Source: Solibacillus sp. FSL R5-0449 (GTDB taxonomy: Bacteria > Bacillota > Bacilli > Bacillales_A > Planococcaceae). Taken from it: a stretch of 64,000 bases of DNA. The notes under the pieces were generated by a model. The model was not told where the DNA came from. It saw nothing but the letters and a program-made list of their open reading frames with translations, and did not search any database. The position numbers and the translations under genes are program-made. The stretch spans positions 3,324,001 through 3,388,000 of the forward strand of contig NZ_CP150239.1 in the NCBI RefSeq assembly GCF_037975215.1. Direction: 5' to 3'. How positions within the stretch are numbered: position 1 is the stretch's first letter; every line of letters begins with the position of its first letter. This document shows, piece after piece, positions 51,373 to 64,000 of this stretch.

Positions 51373-51896
51373 TATAAATCCTCCTTAGTTTTTATATGAA
51401 CCGATTCTTCAATTGTTCTAATTACTAGAAAACTGATCACCTCTAAATAAATTATCCTACTTTCAAAAACTATAGTTCAATATCAATTTACAGTTATTAA
51501 AAATTGGATAAATATAATTTTCTTCCATTTCCGTTCTCTAGTATAGACCTTTATTATGAACTTTATATAAACTATTTAATATTTTATATAAATATTTTCC
51601 GGCAAATTACTCGTTATAGTAAAATAAAAAACCGTTTGCTTATTTAAAAGCGATGTAGCTTTGAAATAAAGTTTGAGCAAAACACCTCGTAAATCCCTAT
51701 TTTACGATTAATAAGAAGAAGTCATTTAGAAAAAAGATTGTTCAAAATGGATTCTTCGTTTGTTTTTATAAGTTTGGTTTTTATAAAAAAGTTTGATTAT
51801 TTTCTTATTCTAAAAACGCGCCTTATAATGGAATAACTGAGTAGCTTCTATTAGCTTGTTTTGTTGAAAATCGTTATTAAACTAAATAAGCTCTAG
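51373..51896. other. Non-coding or decayed stretch
   Basis: A+T-rich DNA with stops in all frames. TTGTTCAAAATGGAT at 51738-51752 recurs at 52116-52130 inside the terminator hairpin downstream. No intact gene is seen; it looks like decayed sequence next to the transposon insertion. Confidence 0.45.
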
Positions 51897-52034
51897 TTAG
51901 TTGAATATCAACAAAATGATGAAGCACTGGAAAAAGCAGTGAAAACAAACGCTACTTATCGAAAAACACGACTACCATTGTGTTATCGTTCAGTAGTAAA
52001 AAAAGTTAACCTAGTTAGGAATTCTACAAGATAA
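51897..52034 (+). pseudogene. Possible gene remnant
   Basis: A 45-codon open frame without start codon or binding site, opening right after an in-frame TAG. Its translation (YQQNDEALEKAVKTNATYRK...) has natural-looking helical composition, which suggests the tail of a lost gene. No family recognised; could be chance. Confidence 0.25.
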
Positions 52035-52095
52035 TAATCAACTTTCGAAAAGGTTAGATTCGAATACCTAGTAGACCCACAATATAAGATAAATT

Positions 52096-52135
52096 AAAAC
52101 ATCCATTTTGAATCTTTGTTCAAAATGGATGTTTT
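52096..52135. terminator. Strong bidirectional terminator
   Basis: AAAACATCCATTTTGAA (52096-52112) pairs perfectly with TTCAAAATGGATGTTTT (52119-52135), a 17-bp stem. It lies just downstream of the minus-strand gene ending at 52158. Confidence 0.75.
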
Positions 52136-52157
52136 AGATTATTGTAGAGTTTTAGTT

Positions 52158-52421
52158 TTACGCTCTTTTGGCTCTTATAGACAAGAATATTCCTAAAATA
52201 AATAGAACAACAAATAGTGGCGCGATAGCTGAATATTCATTGTTTGTTAAAGTTAGAATAGAAATCACTAACATTACTAAGGTAAAAAATAAATTCCCTA
52301 ATAATTCTCGCTTTTTTTTCGGAGTAGTATCTCCTGTAAGTTTTTCCTTAAATATTAGAATTAAACCTAATACAACTCCAATAATAATTAAAGTTATCCA
52401 AACAACATACAATAAATCCAC
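52158..52421 (-). CDS. Small three-helix membrane protein
   Basis: 87 residues with hydrophobic helices at about 4-25, 43-60 and 64-82, and a Lys-rich loop (FKEKLTGDTTPKKKRE). It starts with GTG and has AAGGGGG 8 bases upstream. It is the last intact gene before the left end of the Tn7-like element. No family recognised. Confidence 0.55.
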   Translation of the reverse strand: MDLLYVVWITLIIIGVVLGLILIFKEKLTGDTTPKKKRELLGNLFFTLVMLVISILTLTNNEYSAIAPLFVVLFILGIFLSIRAKRA

Positions 52422-52485
52422 ACAAAATGCCCCCTTAGTAAATAAACAACTGACACAAAGGGAGGACCTTTTATGTCATGTTTAA

Positions 52486-52563
52486 CTATGAATTAAATAT
52501 GACAACGTTATATATACCCGCCTCTAACATTTGATCATAACTTCTTGTATCTCCACCAAAGCG
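52486..52563 (-). pseudogene. 3' end of a gene interrupted by the Tn7-like element
   Basis: From the transposon boundary the minus strand reads 25 open codons (RFGGDTRSYDQMLEAGIYNV...) to a TAG at 52486-52488. The peptide looks like the natural end of a folded protein, and the frame stays open only by chance into the transposon end. The 5' part, if it exists, should lie beyond the right end of the element outside this window. Family not recognised. Confidence 0.4.
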
Positions 52564-52713
52564 TGTGTACTGATAATAAAGTTGTTTAATTTTAATCTTA
52601 TAAATGCACTAACCACCTATCTGTGAATATGAAAGGTGGTATTAAAGTTGTTTAAAAAATCATTTTATTCCTTTGGTTTAAGCTTAAAACAAATAATAAA
52701 GTTGTTTATTTTT
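52564..52713. repeat. Transposon left end with three TnsB-like binding sites
   Basis: TGTGTACTGATAATAAAGT begins at 52564. From memory Tn7 ends start TGTGGGCGGACAATAAAGT, so the ATAAAGT block sits at the same distance from the terminus. The core AAAGTTGTTTA occurs exactly at 52578-52588, 52644-52654 and 52698-52708, all in one orientation, with steps of 66 and 54 bases. A degenerate fourth copy, AAAGCCTTTTA, is at 52758-52768. Three sites across about 150 bases is the Tn7 left-end layout. Confidence 0.8.
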
Positions 52714-52807
52714 TGTTTAATTATTAACTTATTTGCTTTTACTTTTTTATAATATCTAAAGCCTTTTAATTTTTTACTTTAGTTCTCCTCAGATAACAAA
52801 TGGCGTT

Positions 52808-52839: not shown

Positions 52840-55800
52840 TTAATGAGAGTCATATACCCTTACTACCTGATAGACTTCTCCTTTAAGTTTTTTATATAAT
52901 TTATCAAATATATCCGGTCTCATTACCAATTCACAACCTGATAATCTAAATGTTTCTTCACTTAGATCTGTTCCAATTAAGTCATAATCCCAACTTCTAT
53001 AAGCTACCGCAACTTCATTATTATGATCTAGCAAATCTAATTTACTTGGAAAATCTGCCGCCGTTAAATTTAATTCTTTTATTATTGAATCATCTAATTT
53101 CAATAAGTGGTATTCTCCAAAATCATTATAAATCTTTTTGTATCTAACTAAATGAAGTAACGATTGTCCTGAAGAATTGATATCAGATGACTCATCAATA
53201 TACCACCAATCTAAATCTTCTTCTTTCTTAAATGGGGATTTAATATAACTAATTTCAGCAAAATCAGTACTTACAAGACCACTATAAAACTTATTTTGAC
53301 TTATCATGTTTGCAGAGTAGCCTTCTTCTAAAATCACTTCATTTTGAATACTAGCAATCTTAATCCAGCCTTCAAATCCATCTAGATTTGACTTTTGAGG
53401 AGAATATTTTTCTAATACTTTATTCGTATTTTCTGGATAGCGAACTTTGCTATAATTCATTGAAATTGGAATCTTTAAATCACTAATCATATACGTCAAT
53501 ACTAATGGGTGTACATTACCAAAATTCGATACTTCTCTATTTAAAACTTGTTTATAAATTTCGTTTTCTATCCCCCAATAATGTACTTTGGGTAATATAC
53601 GCTCTCTTGTACTTCTAAAAGCATTATACATACTTCGCATCTCTTCTAAATAAGCTTCATTACTATCAAATATACTCTTAAAAGTATTACAAGTTTTCTC
53701 CACTAAGTTTGGTAAATATTTTTCTATATTTATAGCTGCTTGATTTCTGTCTAAAGACAAGATGCTCTTATCATAATAAGTTTCAACCAATAACTCATTA
53801 GCTAATTTATTATCTTCATTTTCAGGATTAATTCCGAGAGCAAAATGAGCTAACTGTTTTATACTGAAATAATCCGATGTTAATAAAAATTGGATCCATT
53901 CACTACTCAAAATTTTCTCAGGAATTTCCTTCTCTAACAAGAGACATAAAATTACCTCAAATGTTGATTCATATATATCTGTTTTCACAAACTCGTTTAA
54001 AGCATTTAAAAATTCATCTTCATAGTTAAAGTAATTATATTGCATTCCCCATAAGGCCCATGTTCTTCTTTTTAATTCTGGATGTGTGAATCTGGATAAT
54101 ACTAGTTCAATAATACTTTCTAAACTATTCGTTCTGACCCCTATATCTTCACAATCTATAAACGGTCCAGAGAATTTTCGCTCAGTTTTTAAACGTAATG
54201 CAATTACCTCAAACGCTTCAGCCCAAAGTTCTTTAGCTAAATCAATATTTAATTTCACAAATAAATTTATAAGATTGGACGTTACCCCAAAAGAAGGTAT
54301 CTCACTATATGTATTGAGTACAAGTTCATTTTGAAGAATACTCTCAACATATTCAGGATATTCACTATAGTAACTTTCTATTTTTGGAATTATTTCTTTC
54401 CCACCAAAATAACTCCATCCGTTTTCATATACTCTTGTAAATTGTAGAATTGATAAATATACTGCAGGCTCAGTTATGTTATGCCTTTCTAAACCTTCTA
54501 TTAAATTATTAAATATATAACATAACTCTTTATTATAGAGTCTAAGTTTTTTGGCTAATAGCTCGATAACTTTATTAATCTCTTCGTGTTTTCCATGATT
54601 TGAATAATCAACCATTTTATAACCTAATGAATTAATAAATTTTTCGGTACATAGTTCATCATAATTTAATCTTTTAATATATAAAATTAATTCCATGAAA
54701 GAGGCCTCGGAAAGGTAGTACTCTACCATCTCATTAGTTCCCTTTTTAATTAAATCCTCTTCACCTTTAACCTCTCTTGTATCGACAAAGGACCCTTTAC
54801 CCTCAAATTCATTCAATAAGTTTAAAGTTTTATCTTCAAAGTTATTTTCATAAATTCTAGCTTTTACAAGACTATAAAGACTATTAGCTTTTTCTATATT
54901 TGTCTCTTTAATTAACTTAATAGCTTCAATCAAATTTTTCACTAATTCGTGACTTAAAGGAACACTAGTTGAAAAAACTGAAATGATATAAGCATCTGCA
55001 GGGATTACACCATAACTCTTAATCATTACTTCTTCTAGTGCTTCTTCTAGTTTCCAATTAATTTTTCCCCAGTTAGATTTTAAAGATTGAGACAATATTC
55101 TAGTGGCCAGATTAAAATCCAAACGTAATAAATATTTAAACCAATCATTGTGAACATACCTTACTTCTTTTTGATCCGTATGATTTAAAATATTATTTAA
55201 TAATGGTAACAACTTAAATAACCCGTGTTTTATCCATTCATCATCAATTCCAATAAAATATTCCGTACTATAAAGCAACTCATAAATAGTAATATCTTTA
55301 TGGAAGCCATAAGAAGATAAGTATCTACAAACCCTGTTCCAACTAGAAAATGCAGCTTCTTTGTTCCCCACTTCATTCATAATAATTGAATAATACATTT
55401 CGTGTTCTGCTTGAATTTCAAAATATTCGCCACTTCTACTTGCTTTATGAGTAAGTCTCTCTATAGCATCAACAATTGCTGGCTTTGCAACATCTACATT
55501 AGTCAATGAATAAAGTAATTCAATCAATTTGGAGGAAATTAGTGGACCACCAGCACTCCCCATTAAATATGTAGTCGTTTTCTTAGAAATACTCTCTAAA
55601 ATAAGTAATAATTCTTCCCATCTACTTACACTACATACATATTTAACACTTTTACTAAATGAATCATAAATATAAGGCTCTATACTATACAAATCACAAG
55701 CACGGGGTTTTCCTTCAAATGGACCGATAATATTTAATAGCGATTTAAAGGATTTTAAAACTTCATTTTCTCTTTCTAAGTCGGATTTAAAATCATAAAA

Positions 55801-58689
55801 TTCAATTTGTGCCATTTTTATATTAAAAACAAGCCACTTTCTATACCAACCACGACCTGAAACCCTATCTAACTCTGAATCTATTATTTCATTATTTTTT
55901 TGGGCTGCATGTATCCTAATAGCTAATATCCACTTATATATATTTTCGGCTCTTGAAATATGACCATTCAAAAATAAATCTATTTCTGATGGGTTTTCTA
56001 CCTTTACACCTTCTAGAATAGAGATGTCTCCAAACTGTAAGAATAAATCTGTTAGTTTTTCTCTATTCCATTCGGAAGGTAAACTTAGAAGCATTTCTTT
56101 TGCCTTAACTCTATCTACTGAAATAAAATATTTTACCAACTCAAATCTAAGTGTATTTTTTAATTCCTCATTCAATTCCATATTAACTAATTCACTAATA
56201 AAATCCGCTAAGTCTAAATCTAATAATATACCTATAATTCCCTTAACATACGAACCATTAAATTCTTCATTCAAATTTTTAAACCAATCAATTAATATTG
56301 GTCTTTTTTCATTCCAAGATTCTAGCTTTAAAACCCCTCTAAAATATGCTAAAGCTGCCTCTAGATTCTCTTGCTTATCAAGCTCCCTATAAGCTTCACA
56401 GTATTCTGCCCATGGAGCTACTTCTCCTTGCTTATCAATTAAATCGCATAGGATAAGTCCGGAATTAATATCTAAAGTAATACGACCATCAAGTATCAAT
56501 CTCTGCGCTAATAAATCAAATCCATAAAGCAATCCAAATGTTTTTGCATATAAACGAATGTCCATTAATTTTTCTTCATATGCTACGTATAAAGATTTTT
56601 TTAATTCATTTATCCTAATCTGCAATCCAAAATCATTCAATTCTTTTGCAGCGTTAGATGCTAGTATTAAATTTCTTTCTATAGCTTTTCTAGGATGACA
56701 ATAAGATATACTATTAATTATAAATTCGTTATTTACTATACTTTTAATTTCATCTAGTAATTCGCCTTTTCTAAGCATACTTAATAAAAACTCATAGGCT
56801 TTAGAATCTAAAAAGAAATCTTTAGTTCTTAACCAATCTATAATGGGTTGAACTAAACTTTTAATTGATCCACCATCATGCTCTAATCTTTCTATAATAA
56901 ACCTTCTAAAACTTTCATGATAAATTCGAATTCCACCTTGTGCAGATACATTAACGAGTATAGGAGATAATAATTCTAATGCTGGAGATACCAATCTACC
57001 ATATGGTCCTAAAATCTCTTTTATTTCTAATTCAGTTAAACCAAAATCTACTGAAGATAAAATTTCTCCAACCAAATTAGCCCCAGAGTCTGTTGTTGAT
57101 TGAAGTAAATATTCGTAATAATTCCTAATATCCCCATCTATTAAAGGTATATTACTTATAAATTCTTCCATATTAATTACTTTTTTATCAACATCTATTA
57201 ATAAACGCTTTATCAAAAAAGTAACGTATAATGGATTTCCTTCAGTTTTTTTCTTAATCTCTTCATAAAAATCAATATCGGAACCTACTAACGATGTAAC
57301 CTTATCGTGTAATTGATAATTATTAAATAATTGTTTTATCTCTTCATTTCCCCAATTAGACATTTCATAATAACGAGTATTATCTAACCTCGATAAAGGT
57401 TCTAGATGCTTACCAGGTTGTGTTCCTAGTATAATATGAACGTTATCAGGGATCTTTAACATCATTAATTTATCAACTATATCTATTTCATCTCTTGATA
57501 AATCTGTTGTAGTATTGAATACTCTAGAAATATGATCTAATCCATCTACGATAATATAGACTTTTTCATTATCGACTGATGCTTGTTCTAAAATATTATT
57601 TAATTCGTCCTCATCAGCACTAAATAATGTTTTCTTTGAATATCTCTTTCCATCTTCTGAATTCATCAAATCTGCTATTAGATTTCCGAACATGACATTA
57701 GTTGTAATACGTCTTTGTACATCTTGATCCCCCGGTTCTAAATAGCAATAATGTCTAGCAACTAAGTAATCCGTTTTTAGATTTTCGTACAACATCGATA
57801 ATAACCATGATTTCCCTGAACCTGGTGTTCCAATTAAAACTGTAAATGCTTTATCTATAGATAACTTAAAGTCATCGAGAATGCTTTCTCTGTTTACGTA
57901 TCTTTTTAAATCTACAATATTTTTCTGAGATACTTTTCCAAAATCCGTTCTTATACCTAACTGGCTAACAATTTCTTTGGGAGTAATAGTTCTACTTTCT
58001 GCTCTACAAATATTGGCTAACCTAATAAGCGTTGCTGCCACATCTATTGCGTTTCTATCTTCATTGGGGTACTTACCAATCCCAATATTATCTTCTAATA
58101 TATTAATAAGATATCTTTCTAATATACCCGGAGATGTTAAATCCAAAGATGCCTTTGGCCAATTCAATTCAATAATAAGAAAATCAAATAGCTCTTGAAT
58201 ATCTCGTCTGTCTATATTTAACTTCGCTATTTCATCCCAAATAGGCTCACTGCCCTCTGGCCACAACTTATCTATTTGTAGTTTGTAGCAGTTAGTAGTC
58301 AATACTTCTAAACTTGGTTCACATTCAATTTTCTTTAGAACTGATAATATTTCATCTTCTACTGGATCATCCCATGCTAAACATAACCTGTATTCTTTCT
58401 CACCGTCTTTTTTAAATTCTAAATGACTCTTAATAATTTCTACTATACTGATTGTGCCTTTTTCATCTTTTATATCTTTAAGTTCTAATATTCGATTTTG
58501 ACTATACTTAAATTGTCTTCTAATCGTTTTCCCCCTTATAAAAATCGTTAAATCATCAAGAGAATCCCCTTTAAATAATTTTTTGTCTACCATAATACTT
58601 TCATAGTTATGCGTTATTGATTGTGCAAAATAACAAGCTGTTACCAAATCTTGATAAATATATCCTCTATGAGCTGCATTTAAAGCCAT
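52840..58689 (-). CDS. Giant Avs-like STAND NTPase with N-terminal Cap4/DUF4297-like nuclease domain
   Basis: About 1949 residues from the ATG at 58689; a GTG four codons earlier has no better site. Residues 1 to about 150 look like a Cap4/DUF4297 dsDNA endonuclease: GYIYQ (9-13), then acidic Asp45-Asp46 and Gln59-Phe-Lys61 as a PD-(D/E)xK-type core. A STAND NTPase follows: Walker A GTPGSGKS (about 287-294), Walker B VYIIVDGLDH (about 377-386), and the KTEGNPLY motif before a winged-helix region. From about 600 to the end is a long helical-repeat region, presumably the sensor, with a small beta-rich C-terminal part. Avs proteins bind phage proteins and then cut DNA; that role here is inferred. 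It starts 25 bases after the tnsE-like stop and is the only cargo. Confidence 0.8.
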   Translation of the reverse strand: MALNAAHRGYIYQDLVTACYFAQSITHNYESIMVDKKLFKGDSLDDLTIFIRGKTIRRQFKYSQNRILELKDIKDEKGTISIVEIIKSHLEFKKDGEKEYRLCLAWDDPVEDEILSVLKKIECEPSLEVLTTNCYKLQIDKLWPEGSEPIWDEIAKLNIDRRDIQELFDFLIIELNWPKASLDLTSPGILERYLINILEDNIGIGKYPNEDRNAIDVAATLIRLANICRAESRTITPKEIVSQLGIRTDFGKVSQKNIVDLKRYVNRESILDDFKLSIDKAFTVLIGTPGSGKSWLLSMLYENLKTDYLVARHYCYLEPGDQDVQRRITTNVMFGNLIADLMNSEDGKRYSKKTLFSADEDELNNILEQASVDNEKVYIIVDGLDHISRVFNTTTDLSRDEIDIVDKLMMLKIPDNVHIILGTQPGKHLEPLSRLDNTRYYEMSNWGNEEIKQLFNNYQLHDKVTSLVGSDIDFYEEIKKKTEGNPLYVTFLIKRLLIDVDKKVINMEEFISNIPLIDGDIRNYYEYLLQSTTDSGANLVGEILSSVDFGLTELEIKEILGPYGRLVSPALELLSPILVNVSAQGGIRIYHESFRRFIIERLEHDGGSIKSLVQPIIDWLRTKDFFLDSKAYEFLLSMLRKGELLDEIKSIVNNEFIINSISYCHPRKAIERNLILASNAAKELNDFGLQIRINELKKSLYVAYEEKLMDIRLYAKTFGLLYGFDLLAQRLILDGRITLDINSGLILCDLIDKQGEVAPWAEYCEAYRELDKQENLEAALAYFRGVLKLESWNEKRPILIDWFKNLNEEFNGSYVKGIIGILLDLDLADFISELVNMELNEELKNTLRFELVKYFISVDRVKAKEMLLSLPSEWNREKLTDLFLQFGDISILEGVKVENPSEIDLFLNGHISRAENIYKWILAIRIHAAQKNNEIIDSELDRVSGRGWYRKWLVFNIKMAQIEFYDFKSDLERENEVLKSFKSLLNIIGPFEGKPRACDLYSIEPYIYDSFSKSVKYVCSVSRWEELLLILESISKKTTTYLMGSAGGPLISSKLIELLYSLTNVDVAKPAIVDAIERLTHKASRSGEYFEIQAEHEMYYSIIMNEVGNKEAAFSSWNRVCRYLSSYGFHKDITIYELLYSTEYFIGIDDEWIKHGLFKLLPLLNNILNHTDQKEVRYVHNDWFKYLLRLDFNLATRILSQSLKSNWGKINWKLEEALEEVMIKSYGVIPADAYIISVFSTSVPLSHELVKNLIEAIKLIKETNIEKANSLYSLVKARIYENNFEDKTLNLLNEFEGKGSFVDTREVKGEEDLIKKGTNEMVEYYLSEASFMELILYIKRLNYDELCTEKFINSLGYKMVDYSNHGKHEEINKVIELLAKKLRLYNKELCYIFNNLIEGLERHNITEPAVYLSILQFTRVYENGWSYFGGKEIIPKIESYYSEYPEYVESILQNELVLNTYSEIPSFGVTSNLINLFVKLNIDLAKELWAEAFEVIALRLKTERKFSGPFIDCEDIGVRTNSLESIIELVLSRFTHPELKRRTWALWGMQYNYFNYEDEFLNALNEFVKTDIYESTFEVILCLLLEKEIPEKILSSEWIQFLLTSDYFSIKQLAHFALGINPENEDNKLANELLVETYYDKSILSLDRNQAAINIEKYLPNLVEKTCNTFKSIFDSNEAYLEEMRSMYNAFRSTRERILPKVHYWGIENEIYKQVLNREVSNFGNVHPLVLTYMISDLKIPISMNYSKVRYPENTNKVLEKYSPQKSNLDGFEGWIKIASIQNEVILEEGYSANMISQNKFYSGLVSTDFAEISYIKSPFKKEEDLDWWYIDESSDINSSGQSLLHLVRYKKIYNDFGEYHLLKLDDSIIKELNLTAADFPSKLDLLDHNNEVAVAYRSWDYDLIGTDLSEETFRLSGCELVMRPDIFDKLYKKLKGEVYQVVRVYDSH

Positions 58690-58714
58690 ATAATTCACCA
58701 CTATTCAAAGTAAT

Positions 58715-60277
58715 TTATTGAAATGCCTTTTCTAAACGTATTTTCCACTCAAAATAATTTTGGTCGATATGTTTTAATCTTTTAAAATCATATTTGAAAA
58801 GTTCTTCTGTCTTCCAATTCCCGCTATTGAATACAAGACTTTTAATAATTGTTAATATGCTTAATTCAATATTAGATTTATCCATAGATGTAAGTATTAA
58901 TGTTGACAGGTTCCTTTTATCGGGAGTCGCTATTTCAAGTATGTAATATTCCTTATTACTCAGTTTGCACTTTACATGTACTAAACAACAAATTCTTCTT
59001 GTTCCATCCGGTAATAACGAAAATTTCCTTCCTAACGGTAAATTAATAAAATTCAAAGCAACTTGATATTTATGAGTATATGTAGACAACAATTGAATCA
59101 TCTTTATAAACTTCTCTAGACCTTGCCCTCTAGTATTTCTAGTTACTTCCACCGAATTAAATTCAATCGGTTGAATCGTCCCTCCTAAGACTGAATCATC
59201 CAAACCTACTATTTGGTGTTGCTCCTTTTGAATACCACCACCTTGACCTTTATTTGAAATATAAATATCACCTTGATTTACATGTTGAGTATCGCCAAAT
59301 ACCTTATGTATAGTCGCAGGATTACCAAAATCAAATTGTGTACCTAATATATTTTCTACTGGCTGATTAGTATCTTGCCTTGAACGTTCATTTGAATCAT
59401 CATTTAAAATACTTTCAAATCCATCTTTTGATTGTGAATTTCGATATTTTCGATCAGCTGGTGCATAAATTCTTTTCTTAAATGCCTTATGTATAATTTC
59501 TATATCATTAAAGTACGTTCCTTCTAAATCAGAACCTAACCACTGTAAAATCAAAAACTTGTTACCATTTTGTAATCCTCGGAAACGAATTTGAGTGTTA
59601 CTGCTACTAGGGAGCTGCACTTCTAATCTCATATACCTTCCATTTTTTTCCTTAGTTTTGATTAATGTATAAATAGATTCAAAGGAAGTTTTAATCTCGG
59701 GACTAAAGTATAACCAGACAAAATACCGTAAAAAATTGTCATCTTTTACAACCGCATTAGGAATCTCATATGCAAGTTCTAAATAAGCTTTGTAATTATT
59801 TATATATGATTTTTTAACCAAAAGCTCTAATCCATTAGGTTGTATCATTGAGTTTGTAATAGTTTTATTAATTGCAAATACCGCGCGAATAAATTCAAAT
59901 TGTGGAAGGAAATATGTATTACCTTCCACCGTATATTCAAAAACATTTTGAAACATCAACTCAGGCATCTTATGCAAGTAATAACCAAACGCCTTACAAG
60001 CATCTAAAGAGCTTACAACTTTATATAGATTCAACTGAGGTATGTTTACGTCATAAACAATACCCGTAGTATTAGTATCCATAAGCTGACCATCTTTATA
60101 AAATGCACCTACCCGTAACAAAGGTAATGCAGCAATTGGAAAATCTAGCATTTTAATTTGATTATCTACTTCAAAAGCAGCCCTAATTCTCCACTGTTTA
60201 TCTTTAATTTCAACATTACCAACCCATTTCAAAACTACTTCTTTATCCTTACCAAAAGTCCATGGTCTTAATTTCAT
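58715..60277 (-). CDS. tnsE: TnsE-like transposition targeting protein
   Basis: 520 residues, close to Tn7 TnsE (538). The conserved C-terminal third is the recognisable part: FKSL-like FIKMIQLLSTYTHKYQVAL, then LPLGRKFSLLPDGTRRICC, YYILEIATPDKRNLSTLI and FNSGNWKTEELFKYDF. This is the TnsE DNA-binding domain layout. TnsE directs insertions to replicating DNA and mobile plasmids through the sliding clamp. A central Gly/Gln-rich loop (about 335-360) is a linker. The gene overlaps tnsD by 29 bases. Assignment rests on position, size and the C-terminal pattern; the N-terminal half is divergent. Confidence 0.75.
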   Translation of the reverse strand: MKLRPWTFGKDKEVVLKWVGNVEIKDKQWRIRAAFEVDNQIKMLDFPIAALPLLRVGAFYKDGQLMDTNTTGIVYDVNIPQLNLYKVVSSLDACKAFGYYLHKMPELMFQNVFEYTVEGNTYFLPQFEFIRAVFAINKTITNSMIQPNGLELLVKKSYINNYKAYLELAYEIPNAVVKDDNFLRYFVWLYFSPEIKTSFESIYTLIKTKEKNGRYMRLEVQLPSSSNTQIRFRGLQNGNKFLILQWLGSDLEGTYFNDIEIIHKAFKKRIYAPADRKYRNSQSKDGFESILNDDSNERSRQDTNQPVENILGTQFDFGNPATIHKVFGDTQHVNQGDIYISNKGQGGGIQKEQHQIVGLDDSVLGGTIQPIEFNSVEVTRNTRGQGLEKFIKMIQLLSTYTHKYQVALNFINLPLGRKFSLLPDGTRRICCLVHVKCKLSNKEYYILEIATPDKRNLSTLILTSMDKSNIELSILTIIKSLVFNSGNWKTEELFKYDFKRLKHIDQNYFEWKIRLEKAFQ

Positions 60278-62141
60278 TTTGCATTTCCCCTTGCTGATAA
60301 AGTTTTATTTCATTTTCTAAAGCTATTTCTACAACATTGCTTAGTTTATTCCTTAATCCTGCTATGCGTCTAACTTTCCAAGTTACTATATTGTTTTCAT
60401 CTTCCATGTAAAGCTTTCTACATGCCCATTTAATACGACGAATTTGAAATTGCTCGCGTGTTTCTATATGTTTATTGAGATAAACTTTTGTTTGCGGGAG
60501 CTTATCTAATAGCTTTTCAAGCAATGATAATTGCCCGATTTTCTTTGCTACTCTACTTTTATTGACGTATACAGGCTTTTCGATGGCGTACAATTTTTGA
60601 ATTGCTTTCTTCACCAAATGAAGAGTATCTAAATCTCGCTTCTCCCAATCAACTCGTTTATTAACTGCCACTTTCATGGTCGTTCTAGGAGGATTTTCTG
60701 TTAACCAACTACGGTTATTACGATAATGCCAAGCATATAAAGCTGAATTGATTTCTCTTAATTGCGTAACGGTATAATCAGAATATATTTCTATTAACTT
60801 GAGCCACTCTGCTTCTTTTTGAATACGTAAATCCATAAGAAGCTCTTTATTATTTAGAGATTTATCTTTTGAGTTAGATATATATTTTTTCACCGTTGCA
60901 TAATCACATTCTAAAACTTGCGCAATACTATACAGACTTAATCCTCTTGTTGCTAATTGGATTAATTTAGCCTGCCATACAGGACCAAAATTCTTTATTC
61001 TACCTACTTTCAGGGCATCTAACTTGTCCATATCTGGTCCGCGCCTTGAATAAACAAATCCACAGTCACAGCTAAACGTACCAACAGGCTTTCTAGTATC
61101 CGTACAAGTTGTTATAGTAACGTTTGATACAATACGTTGTTTATAATGATCCGCCGCTGGATTTAAACAATAATAGGGTGCCTGTCCAAACGGCTCATAT
61201 TTCTTACCTATAAACTTTTCTAAATCTTTAAAAGAAACGTTTAAAAACTGTAGTAACAATAGATGCTGCACTGGATGAAATGCCTTACGGTGTTTTCTAA
61301 CAATGCTTCTTAGCCATGACGTATCGGAATGTTCATCGAAATTGCAATCCATTAATGTTAAAAATTCTTCTCCATAGTAGTGTTTGAACTGCTGCGTAAA
61401 ATATTGCTGATGCACTTTTCCGAAATGATTAGCATAGTCATTTACTTGCATTAAATATTTATAGATTTGTGTGAAGTCTTGTATTTGTGTGTTTTCTACA
61501 TAGTGGATTAAATTAATACTTTCATTGGAAAGCTTTTTCAATTGTTGCTCAATCTTTGGTGAAAATACAGTAAGTAAATGTGGTGATGATAACGTTGCTT
61601 TTTCAGCTGAAACAAATTCATGTTTATGTGGGTTGCGAAATTCAATAGTTGAATCGTGAAGTAATTCTTGATGTAAGTGGCAATAAAACACTTTCGGCAA
61701 TTGCTGACTCATGTGCCAATAAGCTTCTCCGTATTGTTCTCTATCTTGCTGTACACAACTAGGACAAAACCGAAGATATTGCCAATTTTTGATTGTGGAA
61801 GCAGCGATGCCTAGAAACATATGAATAGCTCCAGGCTTTCCGCCGTTATTAATATGGTTTCTTGCACGACATTTCATTATATCTGATTGAAAAGCTGTGT
61901 AGTAATTATACAGTGTATGATTTCTCACCAATTCATTGATATTAGGTGGATTAAAATGTGCGATGTTTCTATAAAAACTCTCTAAATTATTAGGGAAATC
62001 TACTACGGCTACTGAACTCATATTTCCGAACAATTCTTTCATTGTTCGCTTTGAGCTTGTGTTGCCGGAGTGATCATGATAGCGTGCAAACCAGCTATAC
62101 AACAATTCGTCCGGATAAAGATTAGGAAAATAACTAAGCAT
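60249..62141 (-). CDS. tnsD: TnsD/TniQ-family target-site selector
   Basis: 630 residues. The N-terminal TniQ domain has the start FPNLYPDELLYSWFARYHDH and the zinc finger FCPSC (C126, C129) with YCHLH (C154, H157). A second Cys cluster, GTFSCDCGFVYSRRGPD, lies near 355, and several helix-turn-helix-like segments follow toward the C-terminus (LSLYSIAQVLECDYATVKKY). TnsD proteins recognise a specific chromosomal attachment sequence and recruit TnsC. This full-length form indicates site-specific insertion by protein. Eleven bases separate it from tnsC, and its end overlaps tnsE. Confidence 0.92.
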   Translation of the reverse strand: MLSYFPNLYPDELLYSWFARYHDHSGNTSSKRTMKELFGNMSSVAVVDFPNNLESFYRNIAHFNPPNINELVRNHTLYNYYTAFQSDIMKCRARNHINNGGKPGAIHMFLGIAASTIKNWQYLRFCPSCVQQDREQYGEAYWHMSQQLPKVFYCHLHQELLHDSTIEFRNPHKHEFVSAEKATLSSPHLLTVFSPKIEQQLKKLSNESINLIHYVENTQIQDFTQIYKYLMQVNDYANHFGKVHQQYFTQQFKHYYGEEFLTLMDCNFDEHSDTSWLRSIVRKHRKAFHPVQHLLLLQFLNVSFKDLEKFIGKKYEPFGQAPYYCLNPAADHYKQRIVSNVTITTCTDTRKPVGTFSCDCGFVYSRRGPDMDKLDALKVGRIKNFGPVWQAKLIQLATRGLSLYSIAQVLECDYATVKKYISNSKDKSLNNKELLMDLRIQKEAEWLKLIEIYSDYTVTQLREINSALYAWHYRNNRSWLTENPPRTTMKVAVNKRVDWEKRDLDTLHLVKKAIQKLYAIEKPVYVNKSRVAKKIGQLSLLEKLLDKLPQTKVYLNKHIETREQFQIRRIKWACRKLYMEDENNIVTWKVRRIAGLRNKLSNVVEIALENEIKLYQQGEMQNEIKTMDFW

Positions 62142-62152
62142 GGCTTTTCCTC

Positions 62153-63730
62153 CTACATTGCATATTCATCCAAAGGCGATTTGATATATCCTGCTTCTTT
62201 CAATAATTCATAATTCGATTGTTTATTTTTCTTTGCTTGTTCTACTATTTTTACTAATGTGCCTGTACGTTCTTTAGTTACTTTTTGCTTCGGCTTGCTC
62301 AATTGTTCCGCTATATTAATTGCTGATTTCATTAGTGACGGTAAATCTTTATTATCTGTTTCATTCAATGCCTTAGTAGTAGCTTTTTGCGCTATCTCTA
62401 CATCGATTCCTAATGCTATTAAAGAACTCATAATAGTTTCTATATGCGTAAGCCGCTTGTCTTGACGCTTTTGAGCTTGCAGTTCCTTTTTCTTTTGAAT
62501 AGTTGCTCTTAAATCAATTTTCGACTCTCGCATAACTAAATATTCTTCAATATCCATTGGCATAATATCGGCATATTTCTCTAGTTCAGATGTTCGTCCA
62601 TCCTTTAGTGCTTTCAACATTGGCTGTACTAGCTTTAAATCGTCCTTTGCTACTTGCTTAATTGCTGCCGGAGTAATCATCTCCGCACCTGTTTCAATAG
62701 CTCTACCTTGTGCTAATGCAAACAATTTTACAGCTATATCTACAATGCCTTGGCTCTCTTCGTAAAAGGTTTGATTTAGCTCTTCAGTTAAGCTTGTACG
62801 TTTTTGAATCCATTGGTATTCCCATAGACTCTCAATAAGTAAATCCCAATCATCATCTTTCTTCATTTGCTGCCAAACCATATCGCCTTGGCCACTACCT
62901 CTACGTGCTTGTCGAAAATCCTGCTGCAACACCGCTTTTGCTCGCATCGTTCCAATTAATATTACAGGTACACCAATTTCATTAATCAACGTCACAAAGA
63001 AATTCATCATTTTCTCTGAATTATTATCTCGTGTCGCTAATAAATGTTGGATTTCATCAATAATGATTGCACCAATGCAATGTAAGCGAGCAATTTTCCC
63101 CATTTGCGTAACCATGGAGCTGATTGAGTTTCTTCGATTGCCAAACTTCTCATAATAATTTGTACCAAGTAGCGCGTCCATCTTTAAAAAGAAATCTAAG
63201 CATAAAGACTTTAATGATCCGTCATGCGGGCAATTTAATTTTAACCACACGACTTGCATTAAATTTAATGGATGTTCATGCAATATCACTTGCGGATAAA
63301 GCGATAATACCCGTTCAATCGCCGTTGTTTTACCGATACCCGAAAATCCCATTAACGTCATACTAGATGCTGTGGAACGGATATCTTGAGATCCGTTTAA
63401 TGCACGATTATAATCTGGTAGCCTAGGATTCCTACTAACATAACCATGGCGTAACAATCTAGAAAATCGTTGTTCCAAATCCAAATGCTGCATAACTGGC
63501 TGAAAAAATTTATTAATGCGAGGAATCGCATGATAGCGTATATGTGTTGGTAAATTAGCTTCCTGTACATCGTAAGGCGGATAGTAGCTTAATTTTTCGT
63601 ACGCTTCTTCGGGTGAAAGAATTGGTGGTAATGCTTCAATTAAAGGATTACCTTTGAAATCAATAATTTCTTGCTCATTGTATATAGCTGGCATAATTCC
63701 TTGAAGATTTGGCTCATTCATCTTTATCAC
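62153..63730 (-). CDS. tnsC: TnsC AAA+ transposition regulator
   Basis: 525 residues, near Tn7 TnsC (555). AAA+ ATPase core with Walker A GFSGIGKTT (128-136) and Walker B AIIIDEIQHL (221-230). A preceding basic region (about 60-115) and a C-terminal charged tail (about 400-525) likely contact TnsB/TnsA and TnsD. It links the chosen target to the transposase and enforces target immunity. It overlaps the end of tnsB by 17 bases. Confidence 0.92.
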   Translation of the reverse strand: MIKMNEPNLQGIMPAIYNEQEIIDFKGNPLIEALPPILSPEEAYEKLSYYPPYDVQEANLPTHIRYHAIPRINKFFQPVMQHLDLEQRFSRLLRHGYVSRNPRLPDYNRALNGSQDIRSTASSMTLMGFSGIGKTTAIERVLSLYPQVILHEHPLNLMQVVWLKLNCPHDGSLKSLCLDFFLKMDALLGTNYYEKFGNRRNSISSMVTQMGKIARLHCIGAIIIDEIQHLLATRDNNSEKMMNFFVTLINEIGVPVILIGTMRAKAVLQQDFRQARRGSGQGDMVWQQMKKDDDWDLLIESLWEYQWIQKRTSLTEELNQTFYEESQGIVDIAVKLFALAQGRAIETGAEMITPAAIKQVAKDDLKLVQPMLKALKDGRTSELEKYADIMPMDIEEYLVMRESKIDLRATIQKKKELQAQKRQDKRLTHIETIMSSLIALGIDVEIAQKATTKALNETDNKDLPSLMKSAINIAEQLSKPKQKVTKERTGTLVKIVEQAKKNKQSNYELLKEAGYIKSPLDEYAM

Positions 63731-64000
63731 CCTTTCTACGTTTTAAAAAATCTCGTACATTAGGTCTTTTAAAGTCTGTTTCAGCAATTGTTTGAGGAAA
63801 CTCAATAACCTCTGTATCTGCTACTTGCTTTTCAATTATTGGCTTTGCTTCCGCTTTGTGCTGTCTTTCCTTTTCTTCCTTACGGTTATCTCGAATCGCA
63901 CTAACTTGTTCCAATTTACTTAGCGTCGGATCTTGCTGTTCCTTTTTCGCTTTCTCCGCTTTCTTAATAATCGCTTCCACATCAGCAATATAATCAACAT
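63714..64000 (-). CDS. tnsB: TnsB transposase, C-terminal end only
   Basis: The last 94 codons of an open frame that continues past the window edge (upstream residues VDYIADVEAIIKKAEK). It is a very charged helical tail ending PNVRDFLKRRKGDKDE. The catalytic DDE core is not visible. The identification rests on its place directly before and overlapping tnsC; the TnsB C-terminal tail is known to contact TnsC. tnsA is expected further right. Confidence 0.75.
   Translation of the reverse strand, partial: VDYIADVEAIIKKAEKAKKEQQDPTLSKLEQVSAIRDNRKEEKERQHKAEAKPIIEKQVADTEVIEFPQTIAETDFKRPNVRDFLKRRKGDKDE

What the first reader, a model, noticed from the sequence alone, without database searches (positions are those of the whole stretch)
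52840..58689. Cap4/DUF4297-like nuclease fused to a STAND NTPase and long sensor: candidate new Avs variant
The N-terminus shows GYIYQ, DD and QFK in the order of a PD-(D/E)xK nuclease, followed by Walker A GTPGSGKS, VDGLDH and GNPLY. The C-terminal region of over 1300 residues is not recognisable to me as an established Avs sensor type, so the phage trigger may be new.
Basis: partly seen in the sequence, partly recalled or inferred. Interest (0 to 1): 0.78.

Follow-up and report, generated by a model that had tools for sequence, protein, structure and literature searches.

The report
Transposon-carried suicide-type phage-defence protein
A bacterium carries, inside a jumping gene parked next to one of its essential genes, a very large three-part protein that most likely senses an infecting virus and then cuts DNA to stop it, built like known immune proteins but with a sensing part that matches none of the known ones tested.

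Summary
In detail: one intact 1,949-codon gene (ATG 58689, minus strand) with the stated motifs in place. It is a STAND/NACHT NTPase with a nuclease-like N-terminus and a ~1,350-residue C-terminal region, one of nine family members found (Bacillota; plasmids of a cyanobacterium and two gammaproteobacteria). By profile comparison the NTPase resembles Avs1b and a second Cap4-STAND family; against Avs2, Avs3a and Avs4 only the P-loop matches. The sensor matches only the second family's. The Cap4-like assignment is indirect: no Pfam Cap4 match, a link through the second family. In the three other related elements read, that slot holds other defence-type genes. A 96% homologue sits in a collapsed relative of the transposon, its tns genes decayed but this gene intact (dN/dS 0.21). 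Best reading: an Avs-like abortive-infection sensor-nuclease, a new variant of a known kind. Trigger unknown: the Avs1b, Avs2 and Avs3a sensors do not match each other either, though the literature gives them one ligand, so an unfamiliar sensor does not imply a new trigger. No usable structure was obtained.

The parts
52840..58689 (-). Cap4-like nuclease / STAND NTPase / long sensor gene, 1,949 aa from ATG 58689 (GTG at 58701 gives 1,953 aa)
   Evidence: dN/dS
58225..58689 (-). Nuclease-like core, residues 1-155: GYIYQ 9-13, D45 D46, Q59, K61
   Evidence: invariant in nine members; profile comparison to the second family E 3.5e-4 in register; second family matches Cap4-type models
56890..57912 (-). 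STAND/NACHT NTPase, residues ~260-600: Walker A 287-294, DGLDH 382-386, GNPLY 484-488, YHESFRRF 590-597
   Evidence: Pfam; profile comparison to Avs1b E ~1e-20 and to the second family ~1e-27 or better
53470..56889 (-). Sensor region, residues ~601-1740, probably a helical solenoid (inferred)
   Evidence: matches only the second family's sensor, E 1e-13; least conserved part, mean pairwise identity 25.0% against 38.1% (nuclease) and 37.8% (NTPase)
52840..53469 (-). C-terminal module, residues ~1741-1949 (boundary approximate; BLASTP-matched part ~1773-1931), a separate overlapping gene in two gammaproteobacterial plasmid members
   Evidence: profile E 5e-11; overlaps 8 and 11 nt
58715..60277 (-). 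tnsE
   Evidence: Pfam TnsE_C 3.3e-13; 25 nt between its stop and the cargo ATG
60249..62141 (-). tnsD (attTn7 target selector)
   Evidence: Pfam TnsD 1.6e-108, TniQ 2.3e-23
62153..63730 (-). tnsC-like AAA ATPase
   Evidence: Pfam AAA_22 1.1e-19, TniB 7.4e-14
63714..64000 (-). tnsB, 3' part; the gene runs off the window to frame position 65858; tnsA, a 406-aa ORF, the right end (68036) and glmS follow outside the window
   Evidence: Mu-transpos_C 8.2e-11; TnsA domains 6e-21 and 6.9e-09
52564..52740 (.). Left end of the Tn7-like element: TGT terminus and three TnsB-like repeats (52571, 52637, 52691)
   Evidence: three inverted counterparts at the right end
52559..52563 (.). 5-bp target-site duplication AAGCG, repeated just beyond the right end

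Best explanation
It is an Avs-like innate immune protein carried as cargo of a glmS-specific Tn7-like transposon. SHOWN by sequence: intact gene, nuclease-like N-terminus with invariant catalytic-type residues, STAND/NACHT NTPase related to that of Avs1b, long divergent C-terminal region, location in a complete transposon, and a cargo slot that in the three other related elements I read holds different defence-type genes. INFERRED: the protein rests as an inactive monomer; its C-terminal region binds a phage-encoded protein made during infection; ATP binding then drives oligomerisation through the NTPase; this pairs N-terminal nuclease domains, which cut DNA without regard to owner and abort the infection. 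Lying 25 nt after tnsE it is probably read from the tns operon or from an unmapped promoter of its own (not tested).
For: Domain order and motifs. NTPase homologous to Avs1b (E ~1e-20) and to a second Cap4-STAND family (domain 1.1e-27, 8.1e-31; whole protein 1.2e-37); in an 18-row NTPase tree the family is one side of a branch, 96/97. Nuclease: motifs in register with the second family, which matches PADLOC models named 'Effector (Endonuclease)' and 'SAVED_PDDEXK', best per protein 2.5e-7 (L021), 3.2e-9 (L022), 5.5e-10 (L035), 1.6e-6 (L033), 1.9e-4 (L034), and Pfam Cap4 at 2.9e-5 (L021) and 8.1e-4 (L035), both under the curated cut-off. Transposon: ends, duplication AAGCG, tnsABCDE, glmS 25 nt away. 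Slot in relatives: MBL protein (Avs1a 3.1e-93) plus trypsin-NACHT (L058), SIR2_2 plus nSTAND5 (L059), PDC-M37A/B at the same attTn7 (L060). Cargo intact in L. alkalisoli while its tns genes are fragments; dN/dS 0.21. Recognised defence genes near 5 of 8 other members. Mechanism by analogy: passages of PMC12931631, PMC12198126, PMC12724215.
Against: No functional data. Pfam Cap4 is not in the table of the window protein, not among the 25 of 39 families shown for the nine members, nor listed for the consensus. Profile comparison with three stand-alone Cap4-type proteins failed for this family, though it also failed for the second family and L037, so it had little power. AlphaFold models were useless (mean pLDDT 33.3 and 36.0): no fold is shown. 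No meaningful PDB sequence relative. The solenoid nature of the sensor is inferred only. At three of eight other members (L016, L023, L026) I recognised no defence gene, and not every neighbour was scanned. Six of the ten other genomes with a tnsE match were not read.
Confidence: 0.78

Rival explanations
1. Same machine, but a known trigger (a narrower case of the best explanation): the sensor binds the phage large terminase or portal by shape, as Avs1-4 do, despite an unrecognisable sequence.
For: Passages of PMC12931631 and PMC12724215 say Avs1-3 target terminase and Avs4 the portal. In my control the sensor regions of Avs1b, Avs2, Avs3a (partial) and Avs4 do not match one another either (E 0.1-0.79 in six comparisons), while Avs4 against Avs4-like gives 3.5e-54. 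So sequence distance does not predict a new ligand.
Against: None direct; the sensor matches none of Avs1b, Avs2, Avs3a (first 1,138 aa only) or Avs4.
Confidence: 0.4
2. It defends against plasmids or competing transposons rather than phages, for instance by sensing conjugation or replication proteins.
For: It sits on a mobile element; three members lie on plasmids.
Against: Neighbours of other members include antiphage types (BREX, PD-Lambda-4, type I restriction); Avs1, whose NTPase it resembles, senses a phage protein (passages of PMC12724215, PMC12799240).
Confidence: 0.12
3. It is a regulator or accessory factor of the transposon itself, an extended tns operon member.
For: Only 25 nt after tnsE and same strand.
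Against: Other proteins fill the slot in the three other related elements read; I saw no tns genes beside the seven homologues other than L005; in L. alkalisoli it is conserved after the tns genes decayed.
Confidence: 0.05
4. The N-terminal domain is not an active nuclease but an adaptor or inactive remnant.
For: No direct Cap4 match; no fold model.
Against: Catalytic-type residues invariant in nine members; the nuclease region has the lowest dN/dS of four regions in both pairs compared, 0.05 and 0.16.
Confidence: 0.1

Closest known systems
Avs1 (AVAST type 1: Avs1a MBL nuclease, Avs1b trypsin-STAND, Avs1c)
   Same: Related NTPase (profile E ~1e-20); length ~1,950 aa; an Avs1-like MBL plus trypsin-NACHT pair fills the same transposon slot in a relative
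   Different: Effector is a fused nuclease-like domain, not trypsin plus a separate MBL nuclease; upstream gene is tnsE; sensors do not match
Avs3 (Cap4-type nuclease-STAND)
   Same: Works like it on paper: N-terminal nuclease-like domain, STAND NTPase, long C-terminal sensor (Avs3 nuclease dimerisation: passage of PMC12198126; that it is Cap4-type is recalled)
   Different: Avs3a model has no match in this genome; whole-protein profile match confined to 107 columns reaching the P-loop, E 0.014
Second Cap4-STAND family found here (L021 Serratia, L022 Pseudoalteromonas, L033 Klebsiella, L034 Cupriavidus, L035 Roseibium)
   Same: Same order of parts; NTPase and sensor both homologous (E 1.2e-37 over residues ~262-1618; sensor alone 1.2e-13); C-terminal part also split off in three of five
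   Different: Separate group (97/100 against 96/97); its N-terminus is closer to Cap4; its split-off module does not match this family's (0.056)
Tn7-like transposons with defence cargo (PMC8649781)
   Same: TnsABCDE, glmS site, 5-bp duplication, defence-type cargo
   Different: Passages of that survey list R-M, Gabija, sirtuin, CBASS, BREX and others; the words Avs, AVAST and NACHT do not occur in its main text; supplements not seen

Membership tests
STAND/NACHT NTPase | NACHT/STAND P-loop NTPase with Walker A, Walker B-type DGLDH and GxP-type motif | tested here: met
   Pfam NPHP3_N and AAA_22 over cut-off, NACHT just under it (24.9 vs 26.7 bits); NPHP3_N and NACHT listed for 9 of 9 members at E up to 1; motifs invariant
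Avs (AVAST) proteins in general | Effector - STAND NTPase - sensor in one polypeptide | tested here: met
   the effector part rests on motifs and an indirect link
Avs (AVAST) proteins in general | Anti-phage activity on recognition of a phage protein | not testable with these tools
   needs plaque and co-expression assays
Avs1 | Trypsin-like protease at the N-terminus and MBL nuclease gene upstream | tested here: not met
   no trypsin match; upstream gene is tnsE; PADLOC Avs1b listed for 2 of 9 members, best 1.7e-10, not for the window protein
Avs2 | Match to PADLOC Avs2 models | tested here: not met
   PDLC02162 and PDLC02165 find a true Avs2 in genome G485 (2.9e-237, 5.3e-287) but give 0.296 and nothing on the family member in that same genome, and nothing on the window gene
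Avs3 | Match to PADLOC Avs3a model | tested here: not met
   PDLC02167 matches 3 of 249 genomes, not G000; profile E 0.014; references incomplete
Avs4 | Match to PADLOC Avs4 model (Mrr-type effector) | tested here: not met
   PDLC02169 matches 21 of 249 genomes, not G000; listed for 1 of 9 members at 0.041; NTPase profile 0.0054 to Avs4 and 6.2e-5 to two Avs4-like proteins, over 43 and 49 P-loop columns
Avs5 | SIR2 effector | tested here: not met
   no SIR2 match in Pfam or PADLOC scans; no Avs5 reference was compared
Cap4 / DUF4297 nuclease | Match to Pfam PF14130 over its cut-off | tested here: not met
   (the model itself works: 4 of 149 other genomes); filed only as Cap4-LIKE
Cap4 / DUF4297 nuclease | G-x-x-Y-Q, D(D) and Q-x-K motifs in order | tested here: met
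   (pattern derived from these families; its role in Cap4 is recalled)
Cap4 / DUF4297 nuclease | Restriction-endonuclease fold | tested here: inconclusive
   AlphaFold mean pLDDT 33.3 and 36.0
Tn7-like transposon | tnsA, tnsB, tnsC, tnsD, tnsE in order | tested here: met
Tn7-like transposon | TGT ends with inward TnsB-type repeats, 5-bp duplication, insertion just downstream of glmS | tested here: met
   15,473 bp, AAGCG twice, 25 nt from glmS

The most novel reading that the evidence does not exclude
The family, with its relatives, is a new Avs type whose sensor recognises a phage (or mobile-element) protein that is neither terminase nor portal, and whose C-terminal ~200-residue module, a separate gene in some members, is an exchangeable recognition subunit; Tn7-like elements of Bacillota spread such receptors through an exchangeable slot after tnsE.
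Probability: 0.25. Interest if true: 0.72.

Novelty: new variant of a known kind. Interest (0 to 1): 0.52.

Why it matters
If right, it adds a clade of bacterial NLR-like receptors with an Avs1-type switch, a Cap4-like effector and an undescribed sensor, and shows a transposon slot in which different STAND-type and other defences are swapped, twice at the same chromosomal site. That gives a ready set of natural comparisons (same kind of element, different cargo) and a clear experiment to find a trigger. The split C-terminal gene points to where recognition may lie.

Tried and rejected
PDB sequence and profile searches: nothing meaningful (best 0.0072, to a lipoprotein that I judge unrelated). 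Viral contigs, 5 scans, and phage records: no relative. Direct Cap4 comparison with three PF14130-type proteins: no match for this family, but none for the second family or L037 either (best 0.0064), so the test had little power. L037, a PF14130-positive STAND protein, shares the NTPase (whole protein 2.5e-15); past it only 63 columns directly behind the NTPase align (0.0018). Promoter and terminator scan: 26 promoter-like sites against 46.0 expected in shuffles, 1 terminator-like against 1.8, so uninformative. Rejected: reading on the + strand; the gene as a tns-operon function. Dropped rows: near-duplicates L005 and L025 left out of the consensus and of the pairwise identity means; L058's 1,042-aa protein fell out of the NTPase tree because my P-loop pattern missed it; Avs3a references are incomplete (1,138 and 775 aa), so the Avs3 sensor was only partly tested. 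In one search the Avs4-like piece was cut too early and still held its NTPase; its alignment to the Avs4 sensor starts behind that. The 21 of 606 ORFs with the motif include the same genes in overlapping loci. Regional dN/dS differences partly reflect uneven dS (0.055-0.184).

Papers: passages only of PMC8649781, PMC12799240, PMC12198126, PMC12724215, PMC7159879 (the last not used); passages and section 6 of PMC12931631; PMC10293859 search listing only. The original Avs papers (Gao 2020, 2022) did not appear in my listings and are recalled or cited through those passages. Searches for later Avs types, Cap4-STAND proteins or STAND cargo of Tn7 showed none among the rows listed; several lists were capped and the library holds only openly licensed papers.

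Full report
WHAT IS THERE. The + strand frame translated is full of stops.

DOMAINS. Pfam gives NPHP3_N (1.2e-07) and AAA_22 (2.8e-06) over their cut-offs and NACHT just under it at residues ~284-462. The N-terminus has no match; the C-terminal region has only one below cut-off (U3snoRNP10, 0.067). PADLOC's only listed match is mad8 at 0.0061 on the P-loop. NCBIfam gives only weak matches round the P-loop, far below cut-off.

FAMILY. Searches found eight relatives that align over most of the protein: G056, which is Lysinibacillus alkalisoli NZ_BMJT01000021 (96%); G398, G446, G462 and G485 in other Bacillota; and plasmids of Pseudanabaena, Pseudoalteromonas and Moraxella. Counts as printed: 2 of 101 relatives, 4 of 398 of the class and 4 of 398 of the phylum, each including the window's own genome; of the class matches, G159 is an Avs1b (MBL gene beside it) and G133 a weak partial match. 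In plasmids 14 of 72,556 records match, 3 of them (H1-H3) family members; in phages 0 of 50,697. The nine-row alignment A1 keeps GYxYQDL, D39, K41, D46, D49, D50, Q63, K65, the Walker A residues, DGxDHI, QP, GNPLY and YHxSFRR (1,953-aa numbering) without exception although identity to the window protein falls to 24%.

NUCLEASE-LIKE N-TERMINUS. The order G-x-x-Y-Q, D-D, Q-x-K is that of Cap4/DUF4297-type PD-(D/E)xK enzymes (recalled). Directly, Pfam Cap4 does not match the window's genome (the model does match 4 of 149 other genomes), the window protein or the family consensus, and is not among the families shown for the nine members. Indirectly, the N-terminus aligns with that of a second family (L021, L022, L033, L034, L035) at E 3.5e-4, probability 37.5%, motifs in register, and that family matches PADLOC 'Effector (Endonuclease)' and 'SAVED_PDDEXK' models and Pfam Cap4 at 2.9e-5 (L021) and 8.1e-4 (L035), both under the curated cut-off. 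Comparison with three stand-alone Cap4-type proteins failed, but also for the second family. So: nuclease-like, Cap4-like by a two-step link, not a proven Cap4 member.

WHERE THE NTPase AND SENSOR BELONG. I took reference proteins found by PADLOC models: Avs2 (G485, 2.9e-237 and 5.3e-287), Avs3a (partial), Avs4, and Avs1b from plasmid record L020 and genome G159. The two Avs2 models that find the true Avs2 of G485 give 0.296 and nothing on the family member in the same genome and nothing on the window gene. Profile-profile comparisons: whole protein against the second family E 1.2e-37 over residues ~262-1618; NTPase against Avs1b 1.4e-20 and against the PF14130-positive L037 1.4e-11; against Avs2, Avs3a and Avs4 only 27-43 columns round the P-loop (E 0.005-0.008), against two Avs4-like proteins 49 columns (6.2e-5). 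Sensor alone: second family 2.1e-13; Avs1b, Avs2, Avs3a and Avs4 no match (0.09-0.55). CONTROL AGAINST OVER-READING: the sensors of Avs1b, Avs2, Avs3a and Avs4 do not match each other either (0.1-0.79 in six comparisons), while Avs4 and Avs4-like sensors do (3.5e-54); since the passages I read give Avs1-3 one ligand, lack of a sequence match says nothing about the ligand. It does mean that sensor sequence separates known Avs types, so this family is as distinct from each as they are from one another. In an 18-row NTPase tree this family (96/97), the second family (97/100) and Avs1 (95/93) are each one side of a branch; the order between them is not resolved.

MODULAR C-TERMINUS. In the Pseudoalteromonas and Moraxella members the protein ends early and a 287- or 291-aa gene overlaps it by 8 and 11 nt. 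That gene matches the last ~200 residues of the fused members (BLASTP 8e-8 and 3e-12; profile 5e-11). The second family shows the same kind of split in three of five members, with its own module (1.9e-34). This marks the C-terminus as a separable unit.

THE TRANSPOSON. Upstream on the same strand lie tnsE (TnsE_C 3.3e-13), tnsD (1.6e-108), a tnsC-like AAA ATPase, tnsB and tnsA, a 406-aa ORF without Pfam or PADLOC match, then glmS. The ends are TGT termini with inward AAAGTTGTTTA-type repeats, at 52564 and at frame position 68036, flanked by AAGCG on both sides; length 15,473 bp; 25 nt from the glmS stop. The gene begins 25 nt after the tnsE stop and is the main cargo. Its G+C is 29.3% against 36.9% for the window.

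SAME SLOT, OTHER CARGO. A tnsE search matched 11 of 101 genomes, the window's included. Of the ten others I read four; G011, G014, G016, G034, G072 and G081 were not read. G029 (tnsE 68%) has an MBL protein (PADLOC Avs1a 3.1e-93, Lamassu LmuA 7e-91) and a 1,042-aa trypsin-NACHT protein (Avs1b 6.5e-20 over the trypsin part; Pfam Trypsin and NACHT) after tnsE, then a 216-aa ORF and left-end repeats. Such MBL-protease pairs are shared by several defence systems (PMC12799240, passages). G028 (broken tnsE) has a SIR2_2-nSTAND5 protein. G008, same genus and same attTn7 site by flank alignment, has PADLOC candidates PDC-M37A and M37B (3e-89, 2.3e-125) after tnsD and a 34-residue tnsE remnant. L005 (G056) has the same cargo as the window (96.7% DNA identity over 6.4 kb) and the same left end (97.8% over 89 bp), while its tns genes survive only as fragments. 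The cargo stays intact with dN/dS 0.21: nuclease 0.05, NTPase 0.15, solenoid region 0.30, C-terminus 0.26; a second pair, L024/L025, gives 0.27 overall.

NEIGHBOURS OF OTHER MEMBERS. Recognised defence genes lie close to 5 of 8: L005 (HsdM N-terminal fragment 1.2e-26, AbiD 5.7e-22), L017 (annotated type I restriction subunit R, two genes away), L018 (PD-Lambda-4_A 5.6e-127, 52 nt upstream), L025 (23 nt after brxL, with an Eco57I-type methylase and a weak PglZ match upstream), and L024 (same brxL 3' end, judged by a near-identical antisense ORF, at a contig edge). None recognised at L016, L023, L026; not every neighbour was scanned, and no base rate was computed.

MECHANISM. Following the published Avs model (passages of PMC12931631, PMC12198126, PMC12724215), I propose phage-protein binding by the C-terminal region, ATP-driven oligomerisation, nuclease pairing and DNA cleavage with abortive infection. 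Shown: parts, conservation, context. Inferred: nuclease activity, oligomerisation, trigger, phenotype.

NOVELTY. A new variant of a known kind: Avs1-type NTPase, Cap4-like effector and an undescribed sensor, in a Tn7 cargo slot. Defence cargo in Tn7-like elements is itself known (PMC8649781, passages; the words Avs, AVAST and NACHT do not occur in its main text). I found no later Avs type or Tn7-borne STAND nuclease among the rows listed, in a library of openly licensed papers only.

Noticed in passing
L001 16681-17901 (frame 66681-67901, just outside the window): A 406-aa ORF with paired cysteines between the transposon's right end and tnsA; no Pfam or PADLOC match.
   Followed up: partly
L058 10416-14750 (genome G029): Avs1-like pair in the tnsE slot whose trypsin-NACHT protein is only 1,042 aa, about half of the two Avs1b proteins compared.
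   Followed up: partly
L025 17-13630 (genome G485): Family member directly downstream of BREX-type genes (methylase, PglZ-like, BrxL), as if part of the operon; the same genome also holds a true Avs2.
   Followed up: partly
L021, L022, L033, L034, L035: A second Cap4-STAND family on proteobacterial plasmids, 1,907-1,922 aa or split in two overlapping genes, for which PADLOC lists no Avs model beyond weak Avs1b NTPase matches in L033 and L034.
   Followed up: partly
L060 7080-10249 (genome G008): At the same attTn7 site a decayed Tn7-like element carries PADLOC candidates PDC-M37A/B and a PBECR4-type protein.
   Followed up: no
window 51648-52558: About 900 bp of the host flank beside the transposon have no counterpart in G008, where the alignment jumps from 51647 to the element's left end.
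   Followed up: no
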